Below are positions 1-10,871 of a DNA stretch of 12,970 nucleotides, piece by piece (within the stretch, counting starts at the first letter, position 1; the number at the start of each line of letters is the position of its first letter). The DNA is taken from the NCBI GenBank assembly GCA_000433175.1, contig HF986726.1:1-12970 (forward strand). The letters are read 5' to 3'. A model generated the notes under the pieces. That model saw nothing but the letters and a program-made list of their open reading frames with translations. It searched no databases and was not told where the DNA came from. The position numbers and the translations under genes were made by a program. Source of the stretch: Prevotella sp. CAG:1058. GTDB lineage: Bacteria; Bacteroidota; Bacteroidia; Bacteroidales; Bacteroidaceae.

Positions 1-57
1 TATGCCGCCTTTTAGCGTGTAAAAGGCATCCTTTTGCAGCCCGAAAGGTTACCTTTT
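1..57 (+). repeat. 22-bp-period palindromic repeat array, copy 1 (three boxes)
   Basis: A half box, TATGCCGCCTTTT, is followed by AAAAGGCATCCTTTT and GAAAGGTTACCTTTT. The CC pairs of the three boxes fall at 8-9, 30-31 and 52-53, an exact 22-bp period. The opening TATGCCGCCTTTTA is identical to that of the array at 5518-5600, and the same end occurs inverted at 10695-10707. The array may extend left of the window. No coding potential is evident. I do not know a named family for it. Confidence 0.8.
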
Positions 58-156
58 ACTTTTCCTTCCGCCGTCGGCGCTATTTCTTCCGGTGTTAACC
101 CATGTTTTTTGTGGTAATATTCAATAAACAGGCAAGTATTTCGTTATAACCTTGAC

Positions 157-227
157 GGAAAACGGCGGTTTTCCCGAAAAATGTCAGTATTGGGCTAAAT
201 TTTTTATTTTCGAGTAGCTAACGCTAC
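157..227. other. two small hairpins in the 5' intergenic region
   Basis: GGAAAAC (157-163) pairs with GTTTTCC (168-174) around the loop GGCG. GTAGC (214-218) pairs with GCTAC (223-227) around TAAC. Neither is followed by a convincing T-run on the + strand, so a terminator role for a gene left of the window is only possible. The rest of 58-270 holds no gene that I can recognise. Confidence 0.35.
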
Positions 228-280
228 GGTATTTTCTTAAAAAAAGCAATCGAATTAAATTTACTTAACGTTTTTTTTTT

Positions 281-308
281 TTTGTTCAGAGTTTTCGGCG
301 TAAATTTG
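281..308 (+). promoter_or_regulatory. Bacteroidetes-type promoter for the coiled-coil lipoprotein gene
   Basis: TAAATTTG at 301-308 matches the Bacteroidetes -7 consensus TAnnTTTG exactly. A TTTG at 281-284 lies 16 bp upstream, slightly short for the usual -33 spacing. It sits at the end of a 13-T run (271-283). Transcription would start near 314, giving a leader of about 75 nt, AT-rich and without a clear Shine-Dalgarno sequence, as is usual in this phylum. Confidence 0.6.
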
Positions 309-390
309 CAGCGCAAGAATGAAGGATAGAATTCAACCCATCAAGAAAATACTAGTGTTTTTATAAGTTTAATTTAATCAATTTAGTCAA

Positions 391-3300
391 ATGAAAAAGA
401 AAATTTCTAGTTCATTACTCATGGCGTCTATGCTTGCCGTAGGTTCCACGGGTATGCTCGTTTCTTGTTCAGAAGATTATGACGACGACATCAAGAACCT
501 GCAATCGCAGATTGACGGTCTGGCAACGGCAGACGACCTGACCAACCGCATCAACGAGATGGCATCGGCAATCGAGCAGGCAAAGAACGAGGCAATCGCA
601 AAGGCTAACGCCGCCAACGAAGTGGCATTGGCCGCACAGCAAGCCGCAGCTAACGCACAAAACACTGCCGAAGGTGCCCAGCAGGTAGCTGACGCCGCCA
701 TGGCAAAGGCTGAAGAGCTTGAGAAGAACGGCGCAACAAAGGAAGAAGTTGAAGCCGCACGTGAAGCAGCCGCAGCAGCACAGGCTTTCGCCGAGCAGGC
801 AAAGCAGGATGCTGACAAGGCTCTGGCAGACCTCCAGGCCGCACTCGACCAGGCTGTAGCTGCCGCAACTGAAGCTGTAAGCCAGGCCCAGGCTACAGCC
901 GACAACGCTCAGAAGACCGCCGACGAGGCTAAGGAAGCCGCCCAGAAGGCATTCGACGACGCCAAGGCACTTATCGACGAGACAGCAGAAAACGCAGCCG
1001 AAGAGGCAGCAAAGAACGCAGCCGCAGCTGCTGAGGCCCTCGACGCAGCCCTCAAGGCTGAACAGGTTGCCCAGCAGGGTGTGGCTGACGCAGCAAACGC
1101 ACTGGCCGCAGCACAGGCAGCAGACGGCAAGGCCGAGGAAGCCAAGGCAGCCGCAGCCCTCGCACAGGAGGCCGCTACTAAGGCGCAGCAGACTGCCGAC
1201 GAGGCAAAGACACTTGCCAACCAGGCACTCGGCGAAATCTCCGAGCTCGAAAGCAAGCTCAACCAGGCTATCGCTGACGGCGCTACAAAGGACGAACTCA
1301 CCAGCCAGATTAATGCAGCCAAGAATGAGTTGAAGGGTCTTATAACGGAAGCCGAGAACCGCGCAACTGCAGTTGCCAACACTGCTAAGGCTGCTGCCGA
1401 CGCAGCACAGGCTACGGCAGACCAGGCACTCAGCATCGCACAGGCAGCCAAGACAGCCATCGACGCCATCAAATTGCAGATCAACGACGAGACGACAGGT
1501 CTTGCCGCCCTTGACGCACGTCTGAAAGTTGTCGAGGCTTGGATGAAGGGTGGCGAGGCTGAAGGCCTGCAGATCGACCTCAAGGCAATCGAGGAGAAGC
1601 TCGACAGCATTGACGGCGCTCTCAAGGATATCGTAGGCGAGTACTCTACAATGGTAACAAGCGTGTCGTTCTTCTATGCTAACAATACTACATCTGACCT
1701 CAGTCCTAAGTTCAGCAAGGTTACACAGAAGGAGAACACATTCCCGAAAGAGGATGTAACAGATACCCAGTTGACCTTCAAGAAGGATTACACTACTACT
1801 GATTCTGTTTCAGTTATTGTACGTGTATCACCTACAAACGCTAAACTTACTAAGGAGAACATAACACTCATCAACTCTCAGGGCAAAGAGATTAGCGATG
1901 TAGTTGAGTGTGCAAAGGTTGAACCTTTCACAGGCCTTCTTACAAGAAGCGACCTCAACAACGGCCTTTGGGAACTTACATTCAAGATGGTTGACGGTGT
2001 AAGTGCTGCCGATTTCAAGGCTGCAGTTGAACACAACGGACAATCTGTATTGTTTGCTGTAGCAGTAAAGAATACTAAGCTCAACGAAGACGAGCGCCGC
2101 GTGATTACAGGTTATGACCTTACACTCTCTGCAGAGGATGCTAAACCTGCTTCAAACGGCTTCGCCTTGAAGGACAATGCCGGCATCTGGAGGTCTGTTG
2201 AAGATATCAACAACCGCTACGGAGCAACAGGCGCACCTAAAGAGTATGTATGGAAAGACGCTACCAAACCTGCAACCGCACCTATCACTTCTGGTTCAAG
2301 CATCAATGTTGTTGTAGGCGATAACCGTACAGCACAGCCTCTGCTCGCTGCCGAGGTTGACAAGGCTATCGAAATACAGGTAGACTACGATATCAACAAC
2401 AACAAGACCAACAATAAGATTGCCGGTTTCTATGTAACTCTTGACAGCAAGTTCGCTTCAGCTTCTGATCCTTCAGAGCTTAACTCATGGAACAACTACA
2501 GCTATGTAGGCGTTGGCGTTCCTGGCGATGCTAAGAGAAAGGCTACCCTCTTCAAGGGCAATAAGGGCCAGATTACAGTTGCTGATCTTGGCGGTGTAGC
2601 CGGCGACGTTATCGGTTTCCGTCTCTATGCTGTAAACCTCGACGGTACTTTGGTTGACCCGGACGGCCGCGCATTCTATGTAGCAGTAGGTAATACTTCA
2701 ACAGAGGCTACAATACCTGGTGTTACTGTAGACCTGACTAAGGGTACTTCATCTGACCTTGTAGAGGTTGAGGATGGTACATTCATCAACTGCAGCTCTG
2801 TAACAGGTTGGACTTACGCAAGCGGAACCAAGGTTAACAATGTTGCTCCTGTATTCACTGTTAAGTATTACGATGCAGACAAGGCAGAAATAACCAATCC
2901 TGCACAATACGGAGAGATCAAGTATGTCAAGTTCGTTCTTGACAATCCGATGGCTTTCGAAGACGGTGGCACATACACCCAGACTCTCGAACTCTACAAT
3001 GTAATCAGCGGAACTAAGGTTTTGGCTAAGACCATCACGGCTTCTGTAATCAAGAAGATGCCTACAACGTTCAAGGGTGACTTCGGTATCAAGATCGGCC
3101 AGACTTGGAACAATAGCTCGAATATTGTACGTCCGTTCATCACACCGGCTGCCGGCTGGGTTGTTGGAACTTCTTTCGCAACTGAGGGTACGGCTAATTT
3201 GACAGACATCTTCAAGGGTCTCGATGGAACAGAGAAGTACAGGTTCGACTTCGGCACTGATGATATTGACGACGTTACATCTGACAACGGATACGTTCTT

Positions 3301-3888
3301 ACTGTACCTAAGAAACTCATTGACGACAAGGAGCGTGCATTCAACGTTTACAACATCTATAAGGACATCTCTGCCAAGAAGGTTAACGGAGTTTGGGTAA
3401 CCGGCAATTACGAGGTAGCTTACTCTGAGCCTCTGTATATCAAGCTCGCAACTTGGTCTTATGGTATGGAGTATGACTGGCTTACAGTTAAGAATGATTA
3501 TAAGAATCCTTACCACAAGCCGGTTCTGAACTGGACTTCAGCTGGTACTACGGAAAATGTGGTACTGACAGAAATCACTGTTACCAACGACCGTGACTCA
3601 CAGAACTTCGGTGGAACGCTTGCTTCATTGATGGACAACAGCGGCAAGAACTACCTGAACTATGTTGCAGGTTCTGCCAAGCTTACAGCTACTGACGGCA
3701 GCGTTAATCCTTACTTCAATGTAAGTGTTGACGAGAAAAACCTGAAGTTGACGTTCACCCAGAATACAACTGACGCTTCACAGGCTCCTTACGGACAGCA
3801 TGAAGAGACCTTGACCTTCGACGTTCAAGACGCTTACGGAATCAAGACTACAATCACGCTTCCTGTAACAGTGAAGAACCCGAACTGA
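391..3888 (+). CDS. large coiled-coil lipoprotein, probably surface-exposed
   Basis: This 1165-residue protein has no known reaction; it looks structural or adhesive. The signal peptide ends in a lipobox LVSC with the lipidated Cys at residue 26. The next residues, SEDYDDD, are acidic and resemble the Bacteroidetes lipoprotein export signal that sends lipoproteins to the cell surface. The start YDDDIKNLQSQID resembles Bacteroides lipoproteins annotated DUF4988 or PL29 N-terminal domain. Residues about 30-415 form a very Ala-, Gln-, Glu- and Lys-rich helical stalk with recurring AQxTA(D/E) motifs at 89, 166, 173, 265 and 339. From about 420 to the end the protein is Thr-, Asn- and Val-rich and looks like several beta-sandwich domains, the last ending at the C-terminus. 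The gene has its own promoter and terminator. Long antisense reading frames inside it are by-products of Ala codons. The lipoprotein call is firm; surface display is inferred and the ligand is unknown. Confidence 0.88.
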   Translation: MKKKISSSLLMASMLAVGSTGMLVSCSEDYDDDIKNLQSQIDGLATADDLTNRINEMASAIEQAKNEAIAKANAANEVALAAQQAAANAQNTAEGAQQVADAAMAKAEELEKNGATKEEVEAAREAAAAAQAFAEQAKQDADKALADLQAALDQAVAAATEAVSQAQATADNAQKTADEAKEAAQKAFDDAKALIDETAENAAEEAAKNAAAAAEALDAALKAEQVAQQGVADAANALAAAQAADGKAEEAKAAAALAQEAATKAQQTADEAKTLANQALGEISELESKLNQAIADGATKDELTSQINAAKNELKGLITEAENRATAVANTAKAAADAAQATADQALSIAQAAKTAIDAIKLQINDETTGLAALDARLKVVEAWMKGGEAEGLQIDLKAIEEKLDSIDGALKDIVGEYSTMVTSVSFFYANNTTSDLSPKFSKVTQKENTFPKEDVTDTQLTFKKDYTTTDSVSVIVRVSPTNAKLTKENITLINSQGKEISDVVECAKVEPFTGLLTRSDLNNGLWELTFKMVDGVSAADFKAAVEHNGQSVLFAVAVKNTKLNEDERRVITGYDLTLSAEDAKPASNGFALKDNAGIWRSVEDINNRYGATGAPKEYVWKDATKPATAPITSGSSINVVVGDNRTAQPLLAAEVDKAIEIQVDYDINNNKTNNKIAGFYVTLDSKFASASDPSELNSWNNYSYVGVGVPGDAKRKATLFKGNKGQITVADLGGVAGDVIGFRLYAVNLDGTLVDPDGRAFYVAVGNTSTEATIPGVTVDLTKGTSSDLVEVEDGTFINCSSVTGWTYASGTKVNNVAPVFTVKYYDADKAEITNPAQYGEIKYVKFVLDNPMAFEDGGTYTQTLELYNVISGTKVLAKTITASVIKKMPTTFKGDFGIKIGQTWNNSSNIVRPFITPAAGWVVGTSFATEGTANLTDIFKGLDGTEKYRFDFGTDDIDDVTSDNGYVLTVPKKLIDDKERAFNVYNIYKDISAKKVNGVWVTGNYEVAYSEPLYIKLATWSYGMEYDWLTVKNDYKNPYHKPVLNWTSAGTTENVVLTEITVTNDRDSQNFGGTLASLMDNSGKNYLNYVAGSAKLTATDGSVNPYFNVSVDEKNLKLTFTQNTTDASQAPYGQHEETLTFDVQDAYGIKTTITLPVTVKNPN

Positions 3889-3925
3889 AACATTTGACAG
3901 AATTGTATATTTTGTGACTTGCTCG

Positions 3926-3961
3926 GACAGAAGGGGGCTGCCTTGCCAACCTCCTTCTGTC
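3926..3961 (+). terminator. intrinsic terminator after the coiled-coil lipoprotein gene
   Basis: Two 12-nt arms, 3926-3937 (GACAGAAGGGGG) and 3950-3961 (CCTCCTTCTGTC), pair with one mismatch around a 12-nt loop. The downstream TTAAATTT is a modest U-tract. It begins 37 bp after the stop codon and separates this gene from the next. Confidence 0.7.
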
Positions 3962-4088
3962 TTAAATTTCAAGATTGACATTAGGGCTACTTGCCCGTAA
4001 ACGCTGTCAATGCGGCGTTGAATTAGCACGCAGGGCGTGTCCTGTAAGCCCTCCGTGTTTATTTATGGAACCAAAAACAGTTGACGAA

Positions 4089-4478
4089 ATGAAGAAATAT
4101 GTGATAATCCCGCTTCTCCTTCTGGTGATGCTCGCGATGCATTCATGCCGCAAGGAGATCAAGGTCTGCACAGCAAAAATAGAGGAAGTCAGCGACTCAA
4201 CGTCGATGACCACCATGATAGGTGACTATCAGATCAGCTTCGATATCAGCAAGGCGCGTTTCACCAACGGTGCAGTCATGCCTGGCGATTCGGTCCGCAT
4301 CAACTACATAGGCGACCTTAAGGAGAGGAAGGCGAAAGCCCTTGTGGTTTACCTTATACCCAAACCCGGCAATGTTGTTGATGCAGTATACGACCCCGGC
4401 AAGGAGTTGCTGACCAAGCCGATGGACCCTGAGGACAAGAGACGCCTTGACGAGTTTGTCGAACACGCAGGTAACTGA
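4089..4478 (+). CDS. small lipoprotein of unknown function
   Basis: The reading frame opens at 3975, but I place the start at ATG 4089, because MKKYVIIPLLLLV begins a textbook lipoprotein signal peptide with the lipobox MHSC and Cys at residue 20 of 129. An alternative ATG at 4065 would add eight polar residues ahead of the signal. The mature part is about 110 residues. Its pattern GDYQISFDISKARFTNGAVMPGDSV, split by NG and GDSV, is reminiscent of small Bacteroidales lipoproteins with a five-stranded OB-like or NlpE-like barrel, where a short ligand segment is followed by a GDxVxVxYxG turn (here GDSVRINYIGDL). That resemblance is from memory and is weak. The gene lies 127 bp after a terminator and no good TAnnTTTG promoter is visible before it. 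No function can be assigned; it is probably anchored in the outer membrane or periplasm. Confidence 0.75.
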   Translation: MKKYVIIPLLLLVMLAMHSCRKEIKVCTAKIEEVSDSTSMTTMIGDYQISFDISKARFTNGAVMPGDSVRINYIGDLKERKAKALVVYLIPKPGNVVDAVYDPGKELLTKPMDPEDKRRLDEFVEHAGN

Positions 4479-4633
4479 CACCGGTTCCTGAGAATACGGC
4501 ACGGCTGTTGCTGCCATTGCTGTCTGGGCAGCCATCGGCAGGCGGTGCTGTCATTGTGAAGTAATGTTTTAATACTAGTCTGTAAAACTATATGATAAAT
4601 ATATTTTGATCAGGCAGTAATGCCTTAACTATT

Positions 4634-4665
4634 ATATACCGTCTTGGTTTCAGATGGTATATTTG
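4634..4665 (+). promoter_or_regulatory. first of two matching promoter cores (P1)
   Basis: TATATTTG at 4658-4665 matches TAnnTTTG, with TTG at 4634-4636 and a 21-bp spacer. The 15-mer GTATATTTGTTGTCA (4657-4671) recurs exactly at 4849-4863. Transcription would start near 4672, just ahead of a hairpin and T-run. Confidence 0.5.
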
Positions 4666-4671
4666 TTGTCA

Positions 4672-4733
4672 ATTGCAGGTAGGAGGAGAAATTTCCGGAC
4701 TCGTGAGAGTCTGTTTTTCTCCTCTGTTTTTTG
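4672..4733 (+). ncRNA. candidate short RNA or attenuator ending in a terminator hairpin
   Basis: From the predicted P1 start, the RNA would run directly into a two-part hairpin. The outer stem is 4682-4691 with 4716-4725 (10 bp including one G-U pair). The inner stem GACTC (4698-4702) pairs with GAGTC (4707-4711) around GTGA. TGTTTTTTG at 4725-4733 follows. This would give an RNA of about 60 nt, or end most P1 transcripts before the lipocalin gene. It could also simply be the late terminator of the gene ending at 4478. The rest of 4479-4916 holds no gene I can support. Confidence 0.4.
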
Positions 4734-4829
4734 TTGTCTGCGTTCTTCGCTGTACCGTTCCTTTGTTCGGCGGCAGTCGTAACGGGGTGTAAAATGGTAG
4801 AATACTTTATTATTCCCCTGTATTTCTCG

Positions 4830-4857
4830 TTGCTTCAAGATTAATTATGTATATTTG
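4830..4857 (+). promoter_or_regulatory. lipocalin gene promoter (P2)
   Basis: TATATTTG at 4850-4857 is an exact -7 match, with TTG at 4830-4832 and a 17-bp spacer. The sequence from 4849 to 4863 is identical to that at P1. The predicted start near 4864 gives a leader of about 53 nt before ATG 4917. Confidence 0.6.
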
Positions 4858-4863
4858 TTGTCA

Positions 4864-4909
4864 TGCAAACTTATTTGCACGGCATAGGCCGGCAGTAATC
4901 TTAATTACT
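4864..4909 (+). promoter_or_regulatory. structured lipocalin leader: three tandem tetraloop hairpins
   Basis: The leader reads TGCAAA-CTTA-TTTGCA (4864-4879), CGGC-ATAG-GCCG (4880-4891), then AGTAAT-CTTA-ATTACT (4894-4909), and ATG follows 7 nt later. All three stems are perfectly complementary, and the first and third share the loop CTTA. They fill almost the whole predicted 5' UTR. A role in mRNA stability or translation control is inference. Confidence 0.5.
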
Positions 4910-4916
4910 ACTGATT

Positions 4917-5429
4917 ATGAAAAAGATAATGTTATTTTTGCTTTCGCTCCTGGGTCTGGGCGGATGTGCCGGCGGTCCTTTGACCGTTGACAACAGTACG
5001 GTGAAGCAGCTCGACCTCGAGAGGTTCATGGGCCGCTGGTACGAGATAGCACGCTACGACCACAGGTTCGAGCGCGGCATGAGCCACGTCACGGCCACGT
5101 ACAGCCTGCTCGGCGACGGCCGCATAAAGGTGGTTAACGAGGGCGTGAGGAACGGTAAGCGCAAGGTGGCGCGCGGCAAAGGCAAGCTGCCCGACGCTTC
5201 GCAGCCGGGCAAGCTCAAGGTGTCGTTCTTCCTGTGGTTTTACGCCGACTATTACGTTCTCGACATTGCGCCCGACTACAGCTATGTGCTCGTGGGCAGC
5301 AGTTCAGACAAGTATCTCTGGATAATGAGCCGCACGCCGGCCTTGCCACGGCCTGTGCTCGACTCGCTTCTTGCCAAGCTGCGCCGCCGCGGCTACGATA
5401 CGTCGAAGCTGATATTCGTCGAGCAGTGA
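4917..5429 (+). CDS. blc: outer-membrane lipocalin (Blc family lipoprotein)
   Basis: This 170-residue protein is a bacterial lipocalin that binds lipids or other hydrophobic molecules in the envelope; the E. coli homologue binds fatty acids and lysophospholipids. The signal peptide ends in LGGC with the lipidated Cys at residue 17. The lipocalin signature GRWYEIARYDHRFERG starts at residue 39, with the invariant Gly39 and Trp41. VTATYSLLGDGRIKVVNEG and the late block DKYLWIMSRTP are also diagnostic of Blc. The C-terminal FVEQ closely matches the FIWVQQ end of E. coli Blc, and length is normal for the family. The gene has its own promoter and a structured leader, and no partner gene lies next to it. 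The physiological ligand here is unknown. The family call is firm; the symbol rests on motif similarity alone. Confidence 0.93.
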   Translation: MKKIMLFLLSLLGLGGCAGGPLTVDNSTVKQLDLERFMGRWYEIARYDHRFERGMSHVTATYSLLGDGRIKVVNEGVRNGKRKVARGKGKLPDASQPGKLKVSFFLWFYADYYVLDIAPDYSYVLVGSSSDKYLWIMSRTPALPRPVLDSLLAKLRRRGYDTSKLIFVEQ

Positions 5430-5496
5430 CATCGTAAGGCCTTCAGCATGGCTGATGCGCCGCTTGAGGCAGGCGGTGTTTCACTGTCCTCTATCA

Positions 5497-5511
5497 CGCT
5501 GGTAATCAGCG
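5497..5511. terminator. weak hairpin after the lipocalin gene
   Basis: CGCTG (5497-5501) pairs with CAGCG (5507-5511) around GTAAT, followed by GGTTTG. It lies 67 bp after the lipocalin stop, but the stem is short and the T-run is only three bases, so termination here is uncertain. Confidence 0.25.
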
Positions 5512-5517
5512 GGTTTG

Positions 5518-5600
5518 CAATATGCCGCCTTTTACCCTGCAAAAGGTTACCTTTCGGCTTGCAATAGGTAGCCTTTTGCAGCCTGAAAGGTTACCTTTTA
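5518..5600 (+). repeat. 22-bp-period palindromic repeat array, copy 2 (four boxes)
   Basis: The array starts CAATATGCCGCCTTT (5518-5532) and continues with AAAAGGTTACCTTT (5541-5554), AATAGGTAGCCTTTT (5563-5577) and GAAAGGTTACCTTTT (5585-5599). The GG of the last three boxes falls at 5545, 5567 and 5589, and the CC of the first at 5528, one period ahead of 5550. Spacers such as TGCAGCCTG recur between boxes. It lies between the lipocalin and pectinase genes, in the same orientation as copy 1 and opposite to copy 3. Confidence 0.85.
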
Positions 5601-5719
5601 CAAAACGGCCGTTACCGTGGCTGCATAGTGCTGCTTACTTTTATTCTTGCAATAAAAACTATATTTATTGACAAGAACCGCGATTTTATCGCATACTTCA
5701 TTAAAGCTAGGAATTAAAT

Positions 5720-5733
5720 GTGTATATTTACAC
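5720..5733 (+). promoter_or_regulatory. probable pectinase promoter with overlapping palindrome
   Basis: TATATTTA at 5723-5730 differs from TAnnTTTG only in its last base, and no good -33 TTTG lies at the expected distance. The element is inside a perfect inverted repeat, GTGTA-TATT-TACAC. A weak core promoter covered by a palindrome would suit a regulated gene, but the operator role is only inferred. A start near 5737 would leave a leader of about 36 nt before ATG 5773. Confidence 0.35.
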
Positions 5734-5772
5734 GTTCAAAACACTAACTTACTAATATAAACTTTATCTTAA

Positions 5773-8700
5773 ATGAAAAAACTTTGTCTTTTATTCGTGC
5801 TGGTCAGCATGTTGTTGCAGGCCGGCCCGATGCAGGCGCAGGACATGCTTGCGTTTCCCGGCGCCGACGGTTACGGCAAGTACACGACCGGCGGACGCGG
5901 AGGAGAAGTTTGCTATGTGACGCGCACTGACGACTGCAGCGACAACGACCTTGTTGAAGGTACGCTGCGCTGGGCGTTGCGCCACGACAACGGCGGCAAG
6001 CCGCGTACGGTGCTTTTCGCAACGTCGGGCACAATCTATCTTACGAGCAAACTCAAGCTCCAGTATCCCGACGTGTCAATCCTCGGACAGTCGGCTCCCG
6101 GCGGCGGCATCACCATAACGGGCTACCCGATGTACATCTGCCGCGACAACGTAATCATACGCTACATACGTTTCCGCGCTGGCGACATACCCAACGAGAG
6201 CCTTACCGGCCTCGACATGGAGAACTGCGACAACGTGATAATAGACCACTGTTCGATGACATGGTCTATGGAAGAGTGCCTCACGGCCTACGACACTGAC
6301 TACACCACCGTGCAGTGGTGCATCATAGGCGAGGGCCTTTACAACTCTAAGAACTCAAAGGGTGCGCGCGCCTACGCCACGCAGTGGGGCGGCGAGCATT
6401 CAACCATGCACCACACGCTGATTACCAACTCGCATTCGCGTTCGCCCCGCTTCAACGGCGTGCGCTCAAAGAGCAACAACCCAGGCGACCACGACCAGTA
6501 TGTAGACTCTGAGTTTGCCAACAACGTCATCTTCAACTGGAGTGGCTACAACTCAATTTACGGCGGCGAGAACTATCCCGAGTGCAAGGGATACAACCGC
6601 GTCTACATGATAAACAACTACTTCCGTCCGGGTCCGTCAACGCAGAAGGGCACAAGCTCCAGGCGTTATTTTGTCTCGGCAAGCGGCAGCTTGGACCAGG
6701 TAGGCCAGTGGTACTTCAACGGCAACAAGTTTGAAACGTCAAGCAAGTTCGCCCCGACGACCACCGTATGGAGCGACGCCGAACTCGAGAAGGTGAACAA
6801 CGACAACCTCTACGGCCTGCTTGACAACAATTCGTCGAGGGCCATCAACTACTGGAGCCTCACTCCATCGCAGGAGCTTTACGACAAGAGCATCATGACT
6901 ACGCGCCCCGACGAGCTGAGCGGACTGGCTTACGAGACTGCCGACGAGGCATTCCTCAGCGTAACCACCAAGGCCGGAGCGTCGCTTCCGCGCTACGACG
7001 AGGTAGACACCCGACTGTTGCAGGAGGCTGCCGGCACCGTAGACCCGCGCTTCACGGGCAGCCTGAACGAGCTTGGCATCATCGACTCGCCTGACGACGT
7101 CAAGCTGTCTTACACTGACACATACGTCGTTGACGGCGTTACCTACAACAACATGCCCCGCATGTTCGTCGAAGGACAAGACAAGTATATGGTCGATTCT
7201 GACGCCGACGGCATGCCCGACAAGTATGAAGACGAGATGGGTTTCAACAAGAACGATGCCGCCGACGGTGCAGCTTACGCCGACAACGGCTACACCAACC
7301 TGGAGAATTACTTGAACGGCATAGCCGACGGAACTATAAACAAGACCAAGTACGAGACTTCGGCAGAATATGTGGAGCCGGGTCCCGAGGTAACTCCGCC
7401 TGAAACCGTGACCGCCGTTTTCAGCAACACTGACGCAAAGGCTGAAGGCCAGGCGCCCGCACAGATTACCGTAAACTACGGCGAGGCCATCACACTGCCC
7501 GTAAACCGCACCCTCTACAAGGACGGTTACACCCTTACCGGATGGCAGGGCGACGGCAAGCTCTACACTCCGGGACAGACCGTTACCCTGAAGAAGGAGA
7601 CCGTTACGCTTACGGCAATTTATACCCAGAACAAGGTTAACATGCCCGACCGCATCACGGACGTCAACGTTACGTGGGACTTTACTGAAGAAAGCGCCCC
7701 CTCTTTGAGTGGAAGTGGCATATACGTGACCCAGAGTTATTTCTCCGGAGCCGACCACGACGTGCGCCTCAAATACGAGGACGCCAGCATAACGCTGCCC
7801 GCATGTGCCGACGCTAAGGTGACCGTAACCACTGCTGAGGCTGTTGAGGAGTACACCGCTACGGGCGACACGTACGTCTACGACGCCACAGGCAAGCAGG
7901 TAGAGAGCATAAGCGTTGACCTGCCTTACGTGTGGAACACGCCGGACCGCGTATATTACACGCCCGAGATAATGCCCGGCGAGGAGTATATGATATTTTA
8001 CACCACGCCCGAGAATGCCGCTGCGGCAGACTGGATACAGGGTACTTACAAGGAGCGCACCGACAACCGCACCTTCTACGACCCTGAGGTGGACGATAAC
8101 TCGACTTATTACTTAGGTCCGGCTCTCGTGGTAAACAACAGCGACCAGACGCTCGACATGTTTGTGACCGGCACTACCAAGGTGCGCGTGTTCATATCCA
8201 ACCAGAGCAGCTACGTTGACCGTGGCGTGCTTACGGCAACGCCGAGCGACGGCACAGCCCCTGTGAGCGTTCAGTCGGCCAACCTTACGCAGAAGCAGAT
8301 GCCCTACGTGCTCGAGCTTCAGCTTGACAAGGAGAAGAAATACCGCCTGCAAGTGTCTACCGCCAACGACTATGAAATCTCGGTGGGAGCCGTCAAGTTC
8401 TACGGCGACGCGCCCGAGATAACCGAAGGCGATGCCGAAGTTGCATGGCCCTGGGAGGGCACTCCCGATGTGGAAGGCGTGAAGTCGCCCTCTACAATCT
8501 TCACCACGGCCACCTCGTCATACAATTCTGACCTGTACTCAACAAGCTCGAAGACTGCGTTTGACGAAACGTTCGCGGCGTTCAAGCCCGCAGCCGAGAG
8601 CCAGTTTGACGAGCCAGACGTGAACTACGCCATTACTTTCGACATGCAGCCGGCACAAGGCGTTTACTTCATGCCGCAGGAAATAAGTTTCAAGGCTGTC

Positions 8701-10500
8701 AAGTTCGGCACCGATTCAGGCCTGTTTGACGTGACTGTCCAGCAGGACGGCGCCCAGGAAACTACCGTGCTTAAGGGTGGTCAGTTCACCCGCAACAACG
8801 CGGCGTCGCTCAGTGCCACGACGGTAGACCTGTCCGCAGTCGACGGCATCGTGTCTACGGCAGGTCCGTTGAAGGTTCGCATCTACCTTTACAGCATGTA
8901 TCCGGGCAAGGAGTTCGGCTTCAACAACATCAAGGTGAGCGGTAAGTTCAACGGCAACGCACCCGAGGCAAAGACCTACACGTTCACGGCAAAGGCCTCT
9001 CCGGCCGAAGCTGCCAATGTAATATGGTCGCCCGAAGGCGACGTCTTCGAGGACGGCACGAAGATAGCGGTTACTGCCGAGCCCAACAGCGGCTACCTCT
9101 TCGAGGGCTGGATGAACCAGGACGGCGACAAGGTGAGCGAGACCGAGAGTTTCACTTACACCATAAAGTCTGACACCGAGCTTACCGCCGTTTACCGTTC
9201 ATACGACGACTACGGTTACATATTCGACGCCGCTCCCTACGACGCGGCAGTCAAGACCGTGAACGAGCTGAAGGTTGCGCTCAGCAAGGCTGCCGAACGT
9301 AAGGATCAGACGCAGCGCTACCGTATCTTCCTGCACAACGGAACATACGACTACGGCTCGTCTGCGAAGAACGAAGTTAAGGGTGGCGTGTCGCTCATCG
9401 GCGAGAGCCAGGAAGGCGTAATAATAATGAACAAGGCCACCTCGACAAGCAACAATGCCGAGACAACGCCGACAATATTCATAGACCAGAACCAGAACGA
9501 CGTCTACATGCAGGACCTCACCATACGCCAGGGACGCGACTGGGAGACGCAGAAGTCTACCGGACAGGCCATGGCGCTGCGCCAGCGCGGCAAGCGGGCA
9601 GTGTACAAGAACGTCACCCTGCAAGGTATACAGGACACTTATTACCTTAACAAGGCCGACGCCACTGCTTACTTCGAGACTTCAACGATAGCGGGCGAGG
9701 TCGACTATGTGTACGGCGACGGAACTGCATGGCTCGAGAAGTGCAACCTCTACAATACCGGCGCAGGCTATATCACGGCGCCCAACACGCAGCCCGGCTA
9801 CTGGGGCTTCGTAATGAACGAGTGTACCGTAAGCGGAGCCGACGCCGCAGCCGGCAAGTTCTGCCTCGGACGCCCGTGGGGAGACTCGCCTCATGCAACC
9901 TTCATCAACACTACTTTCAACCAGTTGCCTACCGAAGCAGGTTGGGGTAAGATGCAGGATGGACTCGTACTACGCTTCCATGAGTACGGTTCGGTTGACG
10001 CCAATGGCAGCAACATAGACCTGTCAAAACGCTCGCTCGACGCATGTTCGCCAGCAGCAGGTTCCGACAATCCCGTCCTTACGGCTGAAGAGGCTGCCAA
10101 ATACACTATCGGCGGCGTGTTCGGAGAGTGGAATCCGCAGGCCCTTACCGTACAGCTTGCAGCGCCTGAAGTCGTAATCGACGAAGAAACCAATACCCTT
10201 TCATGGAACGCCGTGCCTGAAGCGCTTGGCTATGCCATAGTAAAGGACGGCAGCGTGGTTGCGTTCACAACGGCCTCTTCGTTCAGTATCTCCGACCTGG
10301 GTGCCGGCACATACAGCATCAGGGTTGCCAACGAGATGGGTGGACTCGGCGATGCTTCAAACCAGACAACGGGCATAAGCTCTATTACAGTAGACGGTTT
10401 GGACGGCGACTCGCCAATATACAACGTGTCGGGAGTGCGCGTAGGCAACGACTATAAGGGTGTAGTGATACAGAAAGGAAAGAAGTTCATTAAGAAATAG
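5773..10500 (+). CDS. secreted two-enzyme pectinase: PL1 pectate lyase fused to CE8 pectin methylesterase
   Basis: A signal peptide (cleavage likely after residue 22, MQA-QD) precedes a PL1 pectate lyase (about 25-450) that cleaves de-esterified homogalacturonan by beta-elimination. Its marks are AFPGADGYGKYTTGGRGG, the IDH block at 157-159 and HSRSPR at 221-226, which fits the RxPxxR catalytic region. A calcium-binding DSDADGMPD segment starts at 475. Residues 546-618 and about 1066-1140 look like InlB/Flg_new repeats ending in LTAxY. Between them, about 630-880 and 890-1060, lie beta-rich modules that may bind glycan. The CE8 methylesterase (about 1157-1447) has GQAMAL (Q1265), QDTYY (Q1287, acid/base D1288), GEVDYVYG (nucleophile D1311) and LGRPWG (R1367, W1369), so both active sites look intact. 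A fibronectin-III-like domain (1458-1535) and a conserved-looking Bacteroidales C-terminal tail starting IYNVSGVRV at 1549 end the protein. Cell location beyond export is not certain. Confidence 0.93.
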   Translation: MKKLCLLFVLVSMLLQAGPMQAQDMLAFPGADGYGKYTTGGRGGEVCYVTRTDDCSDNDLVEGTLRWALRHDNGGKPRTVLFATSGTIYLTSKLKLQYPDVSILGQSAPGGGITITGYPMYICRDNVIIRYIRFRAGDIPNESLTGLDMENCDNVIIDHCSMTWSMEECLTAYDTDYTTVQWCIIGEGLYNSKNSKGARAYATQWGGEHSTMHHTLITNSHSRSPRFNGVRSKSNNPGDHDQYVDSEFANNVIFNWSGYNSIYGGENYPECKGYNRVYMINNYFRPGPSTQKGTSSRRYFVSASGSLDQVGQWYFNGNKFETSSKFAPTTTVWSDAELEKVNNDNLYGLLDNNSSRAINYWSLTPSQELYDKSIMTTRPDELSGLAYETADEAFLSVTTKAGASLPRYDEVDTRLLQEAAGTVDPRFTGSLNELGIIDSPDDVKLSYTDTYVVDGVTYNNMPRMFVEGQDKYMVDSDADGMPDKYEDEMGFNKNDAADGAAYADNGYTNLENYLNGIADGTINKTKYETSAEYVEPGPEVTPPETVTAVFSNTDAKAEGQAPAQITVNYGEAITLPVNRTLYKDGYTLTGWQGDGKLYTPGQTVTLKKETVTLTAIYTQNKVNMPDRITDVNVTWDFTEESAPSLSGSGIYVTQSYFSGADHDVRLKYEDASITLPACADAKVTVTTAEAVEEYTATGDTYVYDATGKQVESISVDLPYVWNTPDRVYYTPEIMPGEEYMIFYTTPENAAAADWIQGTYKERTDNRTFYDPEVDDNSTYYLGPALVVNNSDQTLDMFVTGTTKVRVFISNQSSYVDRGVLTATPSDGTAPVSVQSANLTQKQMPYVLELQLDKEKKYRLQVSTANDYEISVGAVKFYGDAPEITEGDAEVAWPWEGTPDVEGVKSPSTIFTTATSSYNSDLYSTSSKTAFDETFAAFKPAAESQFDEPDVNYAITFDMQPAQGVYFMPQEISFKAVKFGTDSGLFDVTVQQDGAQETTVLKGGQFTRNNAASLSATTVDLSAVDGIVSTAGPLKVRIYLYSMYPGKEFGFNNIKVSGKFNGNAPEAKTYTFTAKASPAEAANVIWSPEGDVFEDGTKIAVTAEPNSGYLFEGWMNQDGDKVSETESFTYTIKSDTELTAVYRSYDDYGYIFDAAPYDAAVKTVNELKVALSKAAERKDQTQRYRIFLHNGTYDYGSSAKNEVKGGVSLIGESQEGVIIMNKATSTSNNAETTPTIFIDQNQNDVYMQDLTIRQGRDWETQKSTGQAMALRQRGKRAVYKNVTLQGIQDTYYLNKADATAYFETSTIAGEVDYVYGDGTAWLEKCNLYNTGAGYITAPNTQPGYWGFVMNECTVSGADAAAGKFCLGRPWGDSPHATFINTTFNQLPTEAGWGKMQDGLVLRFHEYGSVDANGSNIDLSKRSLDACSPAAGSDNPVLTAEEAAKYTIGGVFGEWNPQALTVQLAAPEVVIDEETNTLSWNAVPEALGYAIVKDGSVVAFTTASSFSISDLGAGTYSIRVANEMGGLGDASNQTTGISSITVDGLDGDSPIYNVSGVRVGNDYKGVVIQKGKKFIKK

Positions 10501-10505
10501 CAGTT

Positions 10506-10560
10506 TGGCGGCATCCGCCATTATTGCATACGGCATGGCCAAGGCTTTCAGCCGGCCATG
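10506..10560 (+). other. two hairpins after the pectinase gene
   Basis: TGGCGG (10506-10511) pairs perfectly with CCGCCA (10515-10520) around CAT. CATGGCC (10534-10540) pairs with GGCCATG (10554-10560), with an inner GGC/GCC pairing (10543-10545 with 10551-10553) around TTTCA. They start 5 bp after the stop codon and precede the main terminator. They may protect the 3' end of the long mRNA; no T-run follows either one. Confidence 0.5.
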
Positions 10561-10569
10561 ACTACCGCT

Positions 10570-10624
10570 AAAAGGGGATGAGTAAAAAATGTATTTTGAC
10601 ATACATTTCTACTCATCCCCTTTT
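10570..10624. terminator. strong intrinsic terminator, likely bidirectional
   Basis: A perfect 15-bp stem, AAAAGGGGATGAGTA (10570-10584) with its complement at 10610-10624, continues after a small internal loop into an 8-bp inner stem, AAATGTAT (10587-10594) with ATACATTT (10601-10608), around TTTGAC. The right arm ends in TTTT and the left begins with AAAA, so it can act on either strand. It closes the pectinase unit and abuts repeat copy 3. Confidence 0.85.
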
Positions 10625-10709
10625 CCTGAAAGGCCACCTTTTGCCTTGTAATAGGTTACCTTTTGCGTTGTAAAAGGTAACCTATTGCAGCCTGAAAGGC
10701 GGCATATTG
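10625..10709 (-). repeat. 22-bp-period palindromic repeat array, copy 3 (four boxes, inverted)
   Basis: The boxes are GAAAGGCCACCTTTT, AATAGGTTACCTTTT, AAAAGGTAACCTATT and GAAAGGCGGCATATTG. Their GG pairs fall at 10632, 10654, 10676 and 10698, again exactly 22 bp apart. Read on the - strand the array opens CAATATGCCGCCTTT, identical over 15 nt to the start of copy 2. It follows the pectinase terminator directly. Confidence 0.85.
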
Positions 10710-10871
10710 GTAACTGTCTGATTATCAATTATATATATTGGGCTAAAATGCAGTCTGGCAATCTGTGCCGAGATTGCTGTTCGTTGCAGCACTGACATGT
10801 CTTACTGTAGCCTTGTACCTGGCTTGTTCCTTGATTGCCTTATCTAAATTTGAGAAAAAGCTGTGCTTATT

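What the first reader, a model, noticed from the sequence alone, without database searches (positions are those of the whole stretch)
1..10709. Family of intergenic arrays of AAAGGTTACCTTT palindromes with an exact 22-bp period
Three arrays (1-57, 5518-5600, 10625-10709) hold 3, 4 and 4 boxes, each an imperfect AAAAGG-nnn-CCTTTT palindrome, and every box-to-box step I measured is 22 bp. Spacers also vary around TTGCAGCCTG. Because the box and the spacer-flanking halves are both self-complementary, each array can fold in alternative ways as RNA. As DNA, 22 bp is close to two helical turns, so all boxes would face the same side, as in a cooperative protein-binding array. I know no named element with this structure. 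It could be a REP-like mobile repeat, a nucleoid-protein site or a regulatory array.
Basis: partly seen in the sequence, partly recalled or inferred. Interest (0 to 1): 0.72.

Follow-up and report, generated by a model that had tools for sequence, protein, structure and literature searches.

The report
Grid-spaced palindrome arrays in Prevotella
Several Prevotella-group genomes carry dozens to hundreds of short mirror-image DNA boxes placed exactly 22 bases apart between genes; their letters differ between related species while the spacing stays fixed, which suggests docking sites for an unknown, fast-changing DNA-binding protein.

Summary
Three arrays exist, with 3 (one cut by the window edge), 4 and 4 boxes at exact 22-bp steps; seven two-box matches against 0.00 expected.

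The family is real: 20 of 150 genomes of a related genus match, 13 with 6 or more hits, up to about 200. It is intergenic (3 of 109 arrays touch predicted genes) and indifferent to gene direction. No RAYT gene is linked.

Three results go beyond a dispersed repeat. (1) In four well-sampled genomes the head lies at multiples of 11 bp (37 of 40). (2) Some genomes keep the 22-bp pitch with other boxes. (3) Between related genomes the centre base differs genome-wide, only on the grid (G/C to A/T 82:6 versus 7:48), including at five orthologous sites.

I favour phased binding arrays for an unknown DNA-binding protein whose specificity drifts (0.42). A REP/BIME-like repeat is the main rival (0.33): neighbouring boxes are often reverse complements, though not in every genome, and positions turn over. 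No protein was identified; function is inferred.

The parts
1..56 (+). Array 1: first box cut by the window edge (visible 1-12), boxes 22-34 AAAGGCATCCTTT and 44-56 AAAGGTTACCTTT; a head, if any, would lie outside the window
5498..5510 (+). Head palindrome of array 2, GCTGGTAATCAGC, one 22-bp step before the first box
5520..5598 (+). Array 2: boxes 5520-5532 ATATGCCGCCTTT (end box), 5542-5554, 5564-5576, 5586-5598
10629..10707 (-). Array 3, inverted relative to array 2: boxes 10629-10641, 10651-10663, 10673-10685 (perfect reverse complement of the box before it), end box 10695-10707 AAAGGCGGCATAT
10717..10729 (-). Head palindrome of array 3, TCTGATTATCAAT, one 22-bp step beyond the end box
10570..10624 (+). 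Separate hairpin (AAAAGGGGATGAGTA stem) between the stop of the pectinesterase-domain gene and array 3; a candidate bidirectional terminator, not part of the array
   Evidence: z -8.95; the simple terminator scan did not list it

Best explanation
The arrays are clusters of binding sites for one sequence-specific DNA-binding protein per lineage. SHOWN: palindromic 13-bp boxes at an exact 22-bp pitch; in several genomes a palindromic head on the same lattice at multiples of 11 bp; placement between genes irrespective of gene direction; many arrays shared at orthologous sites between close genomes; boxes conserved while spacers drift; a genome-wide, grid-only difference of the centre base between related genomes; other box alphabets on the same pitch. 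INFERRED: a dimer binds each dyad; about two helical turns between boxes lets dimers sit on one face and bind cooperatively; the role is structural or chromosomal (nucleoid organisation, or silencing) rather than control of one gene; when the protein's specificity drifts, grid sites follow. The frequent reverse-complement relation of neighbouring boxes is then secondary, for example from template-switch correction of quasi-palindromes (recalled, not tested).
For: Exact grid: in 400 kb of G001, distances of 100 bp or less between boxes (up to 1 mismatch) are 22 (14), 44 (9), 66 (2) and one of 1; in 380 kb of G327, 22 (7) and 44 (3); reversed-sequence controls have 19 and 27 boxes and no such distance. 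Head offsets: 37 of 40 multiples of 11 in G465, G001, G487, G327 (41 of 49 over all twelve sources); of 256 palindromes of that form TGATNATCA ranks first, the other 255 pooled give 203 of 1653. Intergenic: 3 of 109 arrays overlap predicted genes; divergent/tandem/convergent 19/53/14 against 17.2/55.4/13.4 expected by intergenic length. Head orientation to transcription 11:7. Constraint, G010 against G470: outer box 361/379, spacer 268/331, flank 4845/5504 identical. Grid-only difference: centre G/C: A/T 82:6 (G010), 57:5 (G470), 7:48 (G009), off-grid GTNAC alike in all three; at five orthologous sites 17:2 against 3:14; off-grid GGTNACC in G009 is 11:1, on-grid 1:24. Other alphabets on the same pitch.
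Against: No binding protein was identified, and no gene family recurs beside the arrays in more than 4 of 9 genomes. Presence is patchy (20 of 150, 7 of these with only 1-3 hits), odd for a core nucleoid function. Positions turn over: of 11 G010 arrays whose flank was found in G009, 4 have an array at the same place; the other 7 do not, and two of those G009 loci (L306, L308) have no grid sites in 3.2 kb. Neighbouring boxes are reverse-complementary far above chance in G465 and G487 and in well-kept G010/G470 pairs, which simple site-by-site binding does not predict. G009, G010, G470 and G474 show no head on the lattice (0 of 5 offsets). The head motif was chosen after seeing arrays.
Confidence: 0.42

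Rival explanations
1. REP/BIME-like dispersed palindromic repeats: non-autonomous elements built from inverted box pairs that form hairpins, spread by a transposase not identified here, now largely inherited vertically with some turnover.
For: Lineage-specific boxes, intergenic, dozens to hundreds of copies, patchy. Neighbouring triplets reverse-complementary in 32 of 61 pairs in G465 (6.9 expected, largest of 2000 permutations 17) and 12 of 57 in G487 (3.9 expected, largest 11). In the G076/G540 pair different loci share about 400-650 bp at 74-88% identity. Turnover of positions between G010 and G009 (7 of 11 not shared).
Against: Y1 transposase in 5 of 18 genomes and none of four array-rich ones, no box pair beside the 7 Y1 loci. 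GTAG/CTAC within 8 nt of array ends in 0 of 115 arrays, CGTC/GACG in 2 (control tetranucleotides 3 and 8). No clean empty site: 17 of 22 G540 elements have an array at the orthologous place in G076, 2 do not, 3 unresolved. Copying does not explain the grid-only centre-base difference at orthologous sites or the 11-bp lattice including the head.
Confidence: 0.33
2. RNA elements: the arrays are transcribed and fold into hairpins that end or stabilise transcripts or are cut by RNase III.
For: Arrays fold well below shuffles (z -3.4 to -6.5); array 3 has a 21-bp central stem. Double compensatory changes at two orthologous loci between G010 and G470 (L034/L325, L291/L329).
Against: Equally present in divergent, tandem and convergent gaps; no clear head orientation relative to transcription (11:7; one each way in the window). 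Neighbour triplets that miss complementarity at one position show no G-U excess: 8 G-U against 25 other over G465, G487, G001 (strand arbitrary). Complementarity is absent in G009 (3:4) and not significant in G001 (9 of 40, 6.7 expected) or G327 (2 of 7, 1.8 expected). In the G014 arrays printed neighbours are often identical. A distinct hairpin already lies after the pectinesterase-domain gene.
Confidence: 0.15
3. Transposon-end or MITE remnants: the boxes are multiple transposase-binding sites of a non-autonomous DNA transposon whose head is one end.
For: Arrays are polar with one conserved end in G001 and part of the G465 arrays. By eye in the printed sequence, one G540 copy lies between inverted GGTTCTTCCGTTAA-like ends about 630 bp apart (L150).
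Against: No second conserved end seen in G001 or the window; no recurrent neighbouring gene; many shared sites. Target duplications were looked for only by eye.
Confidence: 0.1

Closest known systems
REP / BIME / REPIN repeats (passages of PMC6006769, PMC3733652, PMC12306157 seen)
   Same: Short palindromes, intergenic, many copies, lineage-specific sequence, often as inverted pairs at regular spacing
   Different: No RAYT gene linked, no GTAG/CGTC foot enriched, a strict 22-bp pitch extended by a head on an 11-bp lattice, no bias by gene direction, a grid-only genome-wide difference of one base at shared sites
BrickBuilt minisatellite MITE of Porphyromonas gingivalis (PMC4596501: abstract, section 5, section 7 part 1, passages)
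   Same: Tandem units of about 22-23 nt between genes in a Bacteroidales species, 19 loci in one strain
   Different: Consensus AGAYCATARTATCCTCTCRTRTG, 23-nt direct repeats, leader and tail with IS5-like TIRs; the term palindrom does not occur in its main text
Clustered operator or iteron arrays for cooperative DNA-binding proteins (recalled, no call)
   Same: Sites spaced about two helical turns, dyad symmetry in some
   Different: Those are one or few loci per replicon; here dozens to hundreds of loci with drifting alphabets

Membership tests
REP/RAYT system | A cognate Y1 (RAYT) transposase gene in the genome, flanked by copies | tested here: not met
   PF01797 in 5 of 18 genomes, absent in G009, G010, G311, G327, G380, G413; no box pair in the 7 Y1 loci, one single box in L079. 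Divergent Y1 genes below Pfam sensitivity are not excluded.
REP/RAYT system | GTAG or CGTC tetranucleotide at the foot of the stem | tested here: not met
   Within 8 nt of array ends in 115 arrays: GTAG/CTAC 0, CGTC/GACG 2, two control tetranucleotides 3 and 8
REP/RAYT system | Dispersed intergenic palindromes in high copy | tested here: met
BIME | Palindromes in alternating orientation at regular spacing | tested here: inconclusive
   Spacing exact; alternating orientation enriched in G465, G487, G470, G010, not in G009, G001, G327 or, by eye, G014
BrickBuilt MITE | 23-nt repeat AGAYCATARTATCCTCTCRTRTG with leader, tail and IS5-like TIRs | tested here: not met
   Consensus and period differ
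MITE | Two terminal inverted repeats and target site duplication, precise empty sites | tested here: inconclusive
   One polar end seen in G001, part of G465 and the window; the two G540 elements without a counterpart lie in larger replaced stretches, not clean insertions; TSD only by eye; L150 has TIR-like ends
Curated RNA family (Rfam) | Match above gathering score | tested here: not met
   None in window; 12 loci given gave only two tRNAs and one TPP riboswitch, none at an array
Protein-binding array | A protein that binds the boxes specifically | not testable with these tools
   Needs pulldown or ChIP

The most novel reading that the evidence does not exclude
A previously undescribed class of bacterial chromosome element: a 22-bp, helically phased grid of dyad sites spread over dozens to hundreds of intergenic loci, whose letters are rewritten genome-wide and in place when the specificity of a trans-acting recogniser changes, so that related species keep the pitch and many of the loci but not the code.
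Probability: 0.3. Interest if true: 0.9.

Novelty: new variant of a known kind. Interest (0 to 1): 0.68.

Why it matters
If a protein reads this grid, Prevotella has a genome-wide site system that changes its recognition code between related species while the sites stay in place: a natural experiment in protein-DNA co-evolution in bacteria, and a possible chromosome-organising or silencing system in a major genus. If it is instead a repeat without a RAYT, it is a REP-like class with an unknown spreading mechanism and a strict spacing rule that needs explaining.

Tried and rejected
RAYT-mobilised REP: tested by Y1_Tnp search and inspection of Y1 loci, not supported. BrickBuilt MITE: compared, different unit. 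Rfam RNA: no match at arrays. Phage carriage: one exact 37-base pattern from array 2 found nothing in viral contigs; no wider search was made. Linked gene: clustering of the flanking proteins of 174 arrays (341 entries before removing duplicates) gave no family in more than 4 of 9 genomes; the one family in 4 includes the homologs of the window's pectinesterase-domain protein. Methylation or restriction at GGTNACC, or general mutation bias, as cause of the centre difference: off-grid motifs do not shift. Terminator role: no gene-orientation bias. A-tract curvature as common denominator: argued only; the GTAACNNNGTTAC arrays lack the A-tracts. Precise insertion in the G540/G076 pair: not seen; L159, L161 and L164 stayed unresolved.

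Rows dropped: identical arrays counted once; arrays without a called gene on both sides left out of the context classes (86 of 109 classed); one search used 14 of 15 G470 loci (in the fifteenth, L321, the nearest array lies about 1.3 kb from the tag). One search was given 20 of the 22 loci.
Full report
WHAT WAS CLAIMED AND WHAT IS THERE. The window holds three intergenic arrays of 13-bp palindromic boxes (AAAGGNNNCCTTT and variants). Box starts are 22 and 44 (plus one cut by the edge), 5520/5542/5564/5586, and 10629/10651/10673/10695; every step is 22. Two-box matches: 7 found, 0.00 expected; single boxes: 8 found, 0.41 expected. The end box is a distinct type, ATATGCCGCCTTT, at the left of arrays 1 and 2; array 3 ends at the right with AAAGGCGGCATAT, so it is inverted. 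One further 22-bp step outward lies a palindrome, GCTGGTAATCAGC (5498-5510) or TCTGATTATCAAT (10717-10729), which I call the head. Arrays 2 and 3 flank the 1575-aa pectinesterase-domain gene 5773-10500 with heads outward.

HOW COMMON. No whole genome is held for the window. Relatives of the 1575-aa protein gave 22 loci; 20 of them were given on and led to 20 genomes. Of these, 4 of 20 had two-box matches at up to one mismatch: G001 (Xylanibacter caecicola) 50, G009 69, G010 43, G007 1; reversed-pattern control 0. At family rank 7 of 399 genomes matched exactly (control: 1 genome). At genus rank 20 of 150 matched, 13 with 6 or more forward hits (most 205, G487) and 7 with 1-3 hits in all, near background (control: 1 genome). 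At order rank 5 of 295, four of them with a single hit, fewer genomes than the 11 hit by the reversed control. Three of the seven family hits (G001, G226, G319) recur in the genus draw; the rank of the other four is not told. So the AAAGG form is concentrated in the genus and I saw it nowhere outside the family.

THE GRID. In 400 kb of G001 the distances of 100 bp or less between boxes (up to 1 mismatch) are 22 (14), 44 (9), 66 (2) and one of 1; in 380 kb of G327, 22 (7) and 44 (3); reversed-sequence controls, with 19 and 27 boxes, have none. The head motif TGATNATCA (up to one mismatch, searched 6 to 70 bp outside arrays) lies at multiples of 11 bp: G465 16 of 16, G001 13 of 13 (11 of them at 11 bp), G487 6 of 8, G327 2 of 3, window 2 of 2, G226 1 of 1, G319 1 of 1; G009, G010, G470 and G474 0 of 5 together, G311 none found; overall 41 of 49. 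Heads were found at a minority of arrays (16 of 46 in G465, 13 of 34 in G001, 7 of 23 in G487, 3 of 13 in G327). The motif was chosen after seeing arrays; as a control, among all 256 palindromes of that form it ranks first for hits on the lattice (37 of 40 in the four large sets), the other 255 pooled give 203 of 1653. Copies are related and not independent.

OTHER ALPHABETS. A scan that ignores sequence, for three palindromic 13-mers in a row, found 4 runs at step 22 in 16 loci of genomes without AAAGG arrays, against a mean of 0.0 (largest 1) at other steps. All four lie in two arrays, L016 and L018, which have the same right flank and so are one locus in two genomes; their box is GTAACNNNGTTAC. 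The genus survey with that box then gave 105 forward and 110 reverse hits in G014 and 1-4 hits in six others, of 150 (control: 2 genomes with 1). A third box, GTAAGGNCCTTAC, with a loosely defined second part and up to 2 mismatches, matched 46/45 times in G018, 29/31 in G014, 24/26 in G016 and 0 in G001, G002, G003 (controls 0-3); in 10 fetched loci 5 of 24 counted boxes have a second dyad at 22 bp, 1 at 23 and 1 at 29, none at the other distances from 15 to 30 (both strands counted). The pitch is shared; the letters are not.

PLACE AND INHERITANCE. Of 109 arrays in five genomes' stretches, 3 overlap predicted genes; among 86 that could be classed, divergent/tandem/convergent neighbours are 19/53/14 against 17.2/55.4/13.4 expected from intergenic length (my own simple gene caller). 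Head orientation to transcription in tandem gaps is 11:7. Between G076 and G540 (about 95% identical; I recall the contig lengths of G076 as those of P. melaninogenica ATCC 25845, no call names it), 17 of 22 G540 elements have an array at the orthologous place, 2 (L150, the first in L162) do not, 3 are unresolved. Between G010 and G470, 14 of 15 loci carry an array at the same place, one partly deleted; in the fifteenth the nearest array is about 1.3 kb from the tag. Outer box positions are 361/379 identical, centre triplets 103/114, spacers 268/331, flanks 4845/5504 (14 loci). Boxes in G010 were chosen for fitting the pattern, which slightly favours box over spacer. Between G010 and the more distant G009, 4 of 11 tag-found loci have an array at the same place; the other 7 do not: two (L306, L308) have no grid sites in the 3.2 kb held, five have some elsewhere in it. 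So positions are stable over short distances and turn over at larger ones.

THE CENTRE BASE. On the grid, GTNAC centres are G/C:A/T 82:6 in G010, 57:5 in G470 and 7:48 in G009, while off-grid GTNAC is 225:79, 124:49 and 206:81. Off-grid GGTNACC in G009 is 11:1, on-grid 1:24. At five orthologous sites (the four above and the one upstream of the pectinesterase-domain gene, L012/L011) the centres are 17:2 in G010 and 3:14 in G009. A difference confined to the grid, in place and across loci, is hard to explain by copying of elements, mutation bias or methylation of the short motif; following a trans-acting recogniser is the simplest account, and it is an inference.

PAIRING. Neighbouring boxes have reverse-complementary triplets in 32 of 61 pairs in G465 (expected 6.9) and 12 of 57 in G487 (3.9), not significantly in G001 (9 of 40, 6.7) or G327 (2 of 7, 1.8). 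Two boxes apart there is no clear excess; three apart 4 of 8 in G465 (1.2 expected), 0 of 15 in G487, 1 of 7 in G001. Well-kept pairs: G010 17 opposite to 6 same, G470 14 to 2, G009 3 to 4. In the G014 arrays printed, neighbours are often identical. Two orthologous loci show double compensatory changes. The window arrays fold with z -3.4 to -6.5. So hairpin symmetry is real in several lineages but not general, whereas the pitch is. Triplets that miss at one position show no G-U excess (8 against 25). Template-switch correction of quasi-palindromes would give this pattern without RNA function; that is recalled knowledge, not tested.

KNOWN THINGS. Searches of the PMC open-licence library, which lacks most subscription papers, gave no description of these arrays in the listings seen; listings were capped. 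Of PMC4596501 I saw the abstract, section 5, section 7 part 1 and passages; of PMC6006769, PMC3733652, PMC12306157 and PMC5771137 passages only. The closest kinds are REP/BIME repeats and the BrickBuilt MITE; the REP/RAYT system and BrickBuilt fail tested features, BIME is left inconclusive (membership table). The arrays resemble BIMEs in architecture but are not shown to be members.

VERDICT. A real family, widespread within its group, that I found undescribed, with a strict spacing law and a drifting code. I commit to binding arrays for an unidentified DNA-binding protein at 0.42; REP-like repeats at 0.33. It is scored as a new variant of dispersed palindromic repeats because no protein or function is shown.

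Noticed in passing
window 10570-10624: Hairpin with a perfect 15-bp outer stem (AAAAGGGGATGAGTA...TACTCATCCCCTTTT) between the pectinesterase-domain gene and array 3, RNA fold z -8.95; perhaps a bidirectional terminator, not listed by the simple scan.
   Followed up: partly
window 5773-10500; L011, L012, L001: 1575-aa protein with a C-terminal pectinesterase domain and InlB-like repeats, no Pfam match in its first 550 residues. In the window, G009 (L011) and G010 (L012) an array lies just upstream of its gene; none in L001.
   Followed up: partly
G018, G016, G014 (L365-L374): GTAAGGNCCTTAC box repeat with a recurring spacer and, in part, a second dyad 22 bp on: 24-46 loose matches per strand.
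   Followed up: partly
L150 about 3774-4410 (G540): One array of the G076/G540 pair lies between inverted GGTTCTTCCGTTAA-like ends about 630 bp apart, suggesting capture by a MITE in that lineage.
   Followed up: no
window 391-3888: 1165-aa lipoprotein-like protein (by eye) with a long alanine-rich stretch and no Pfam match.
   Followed up: no
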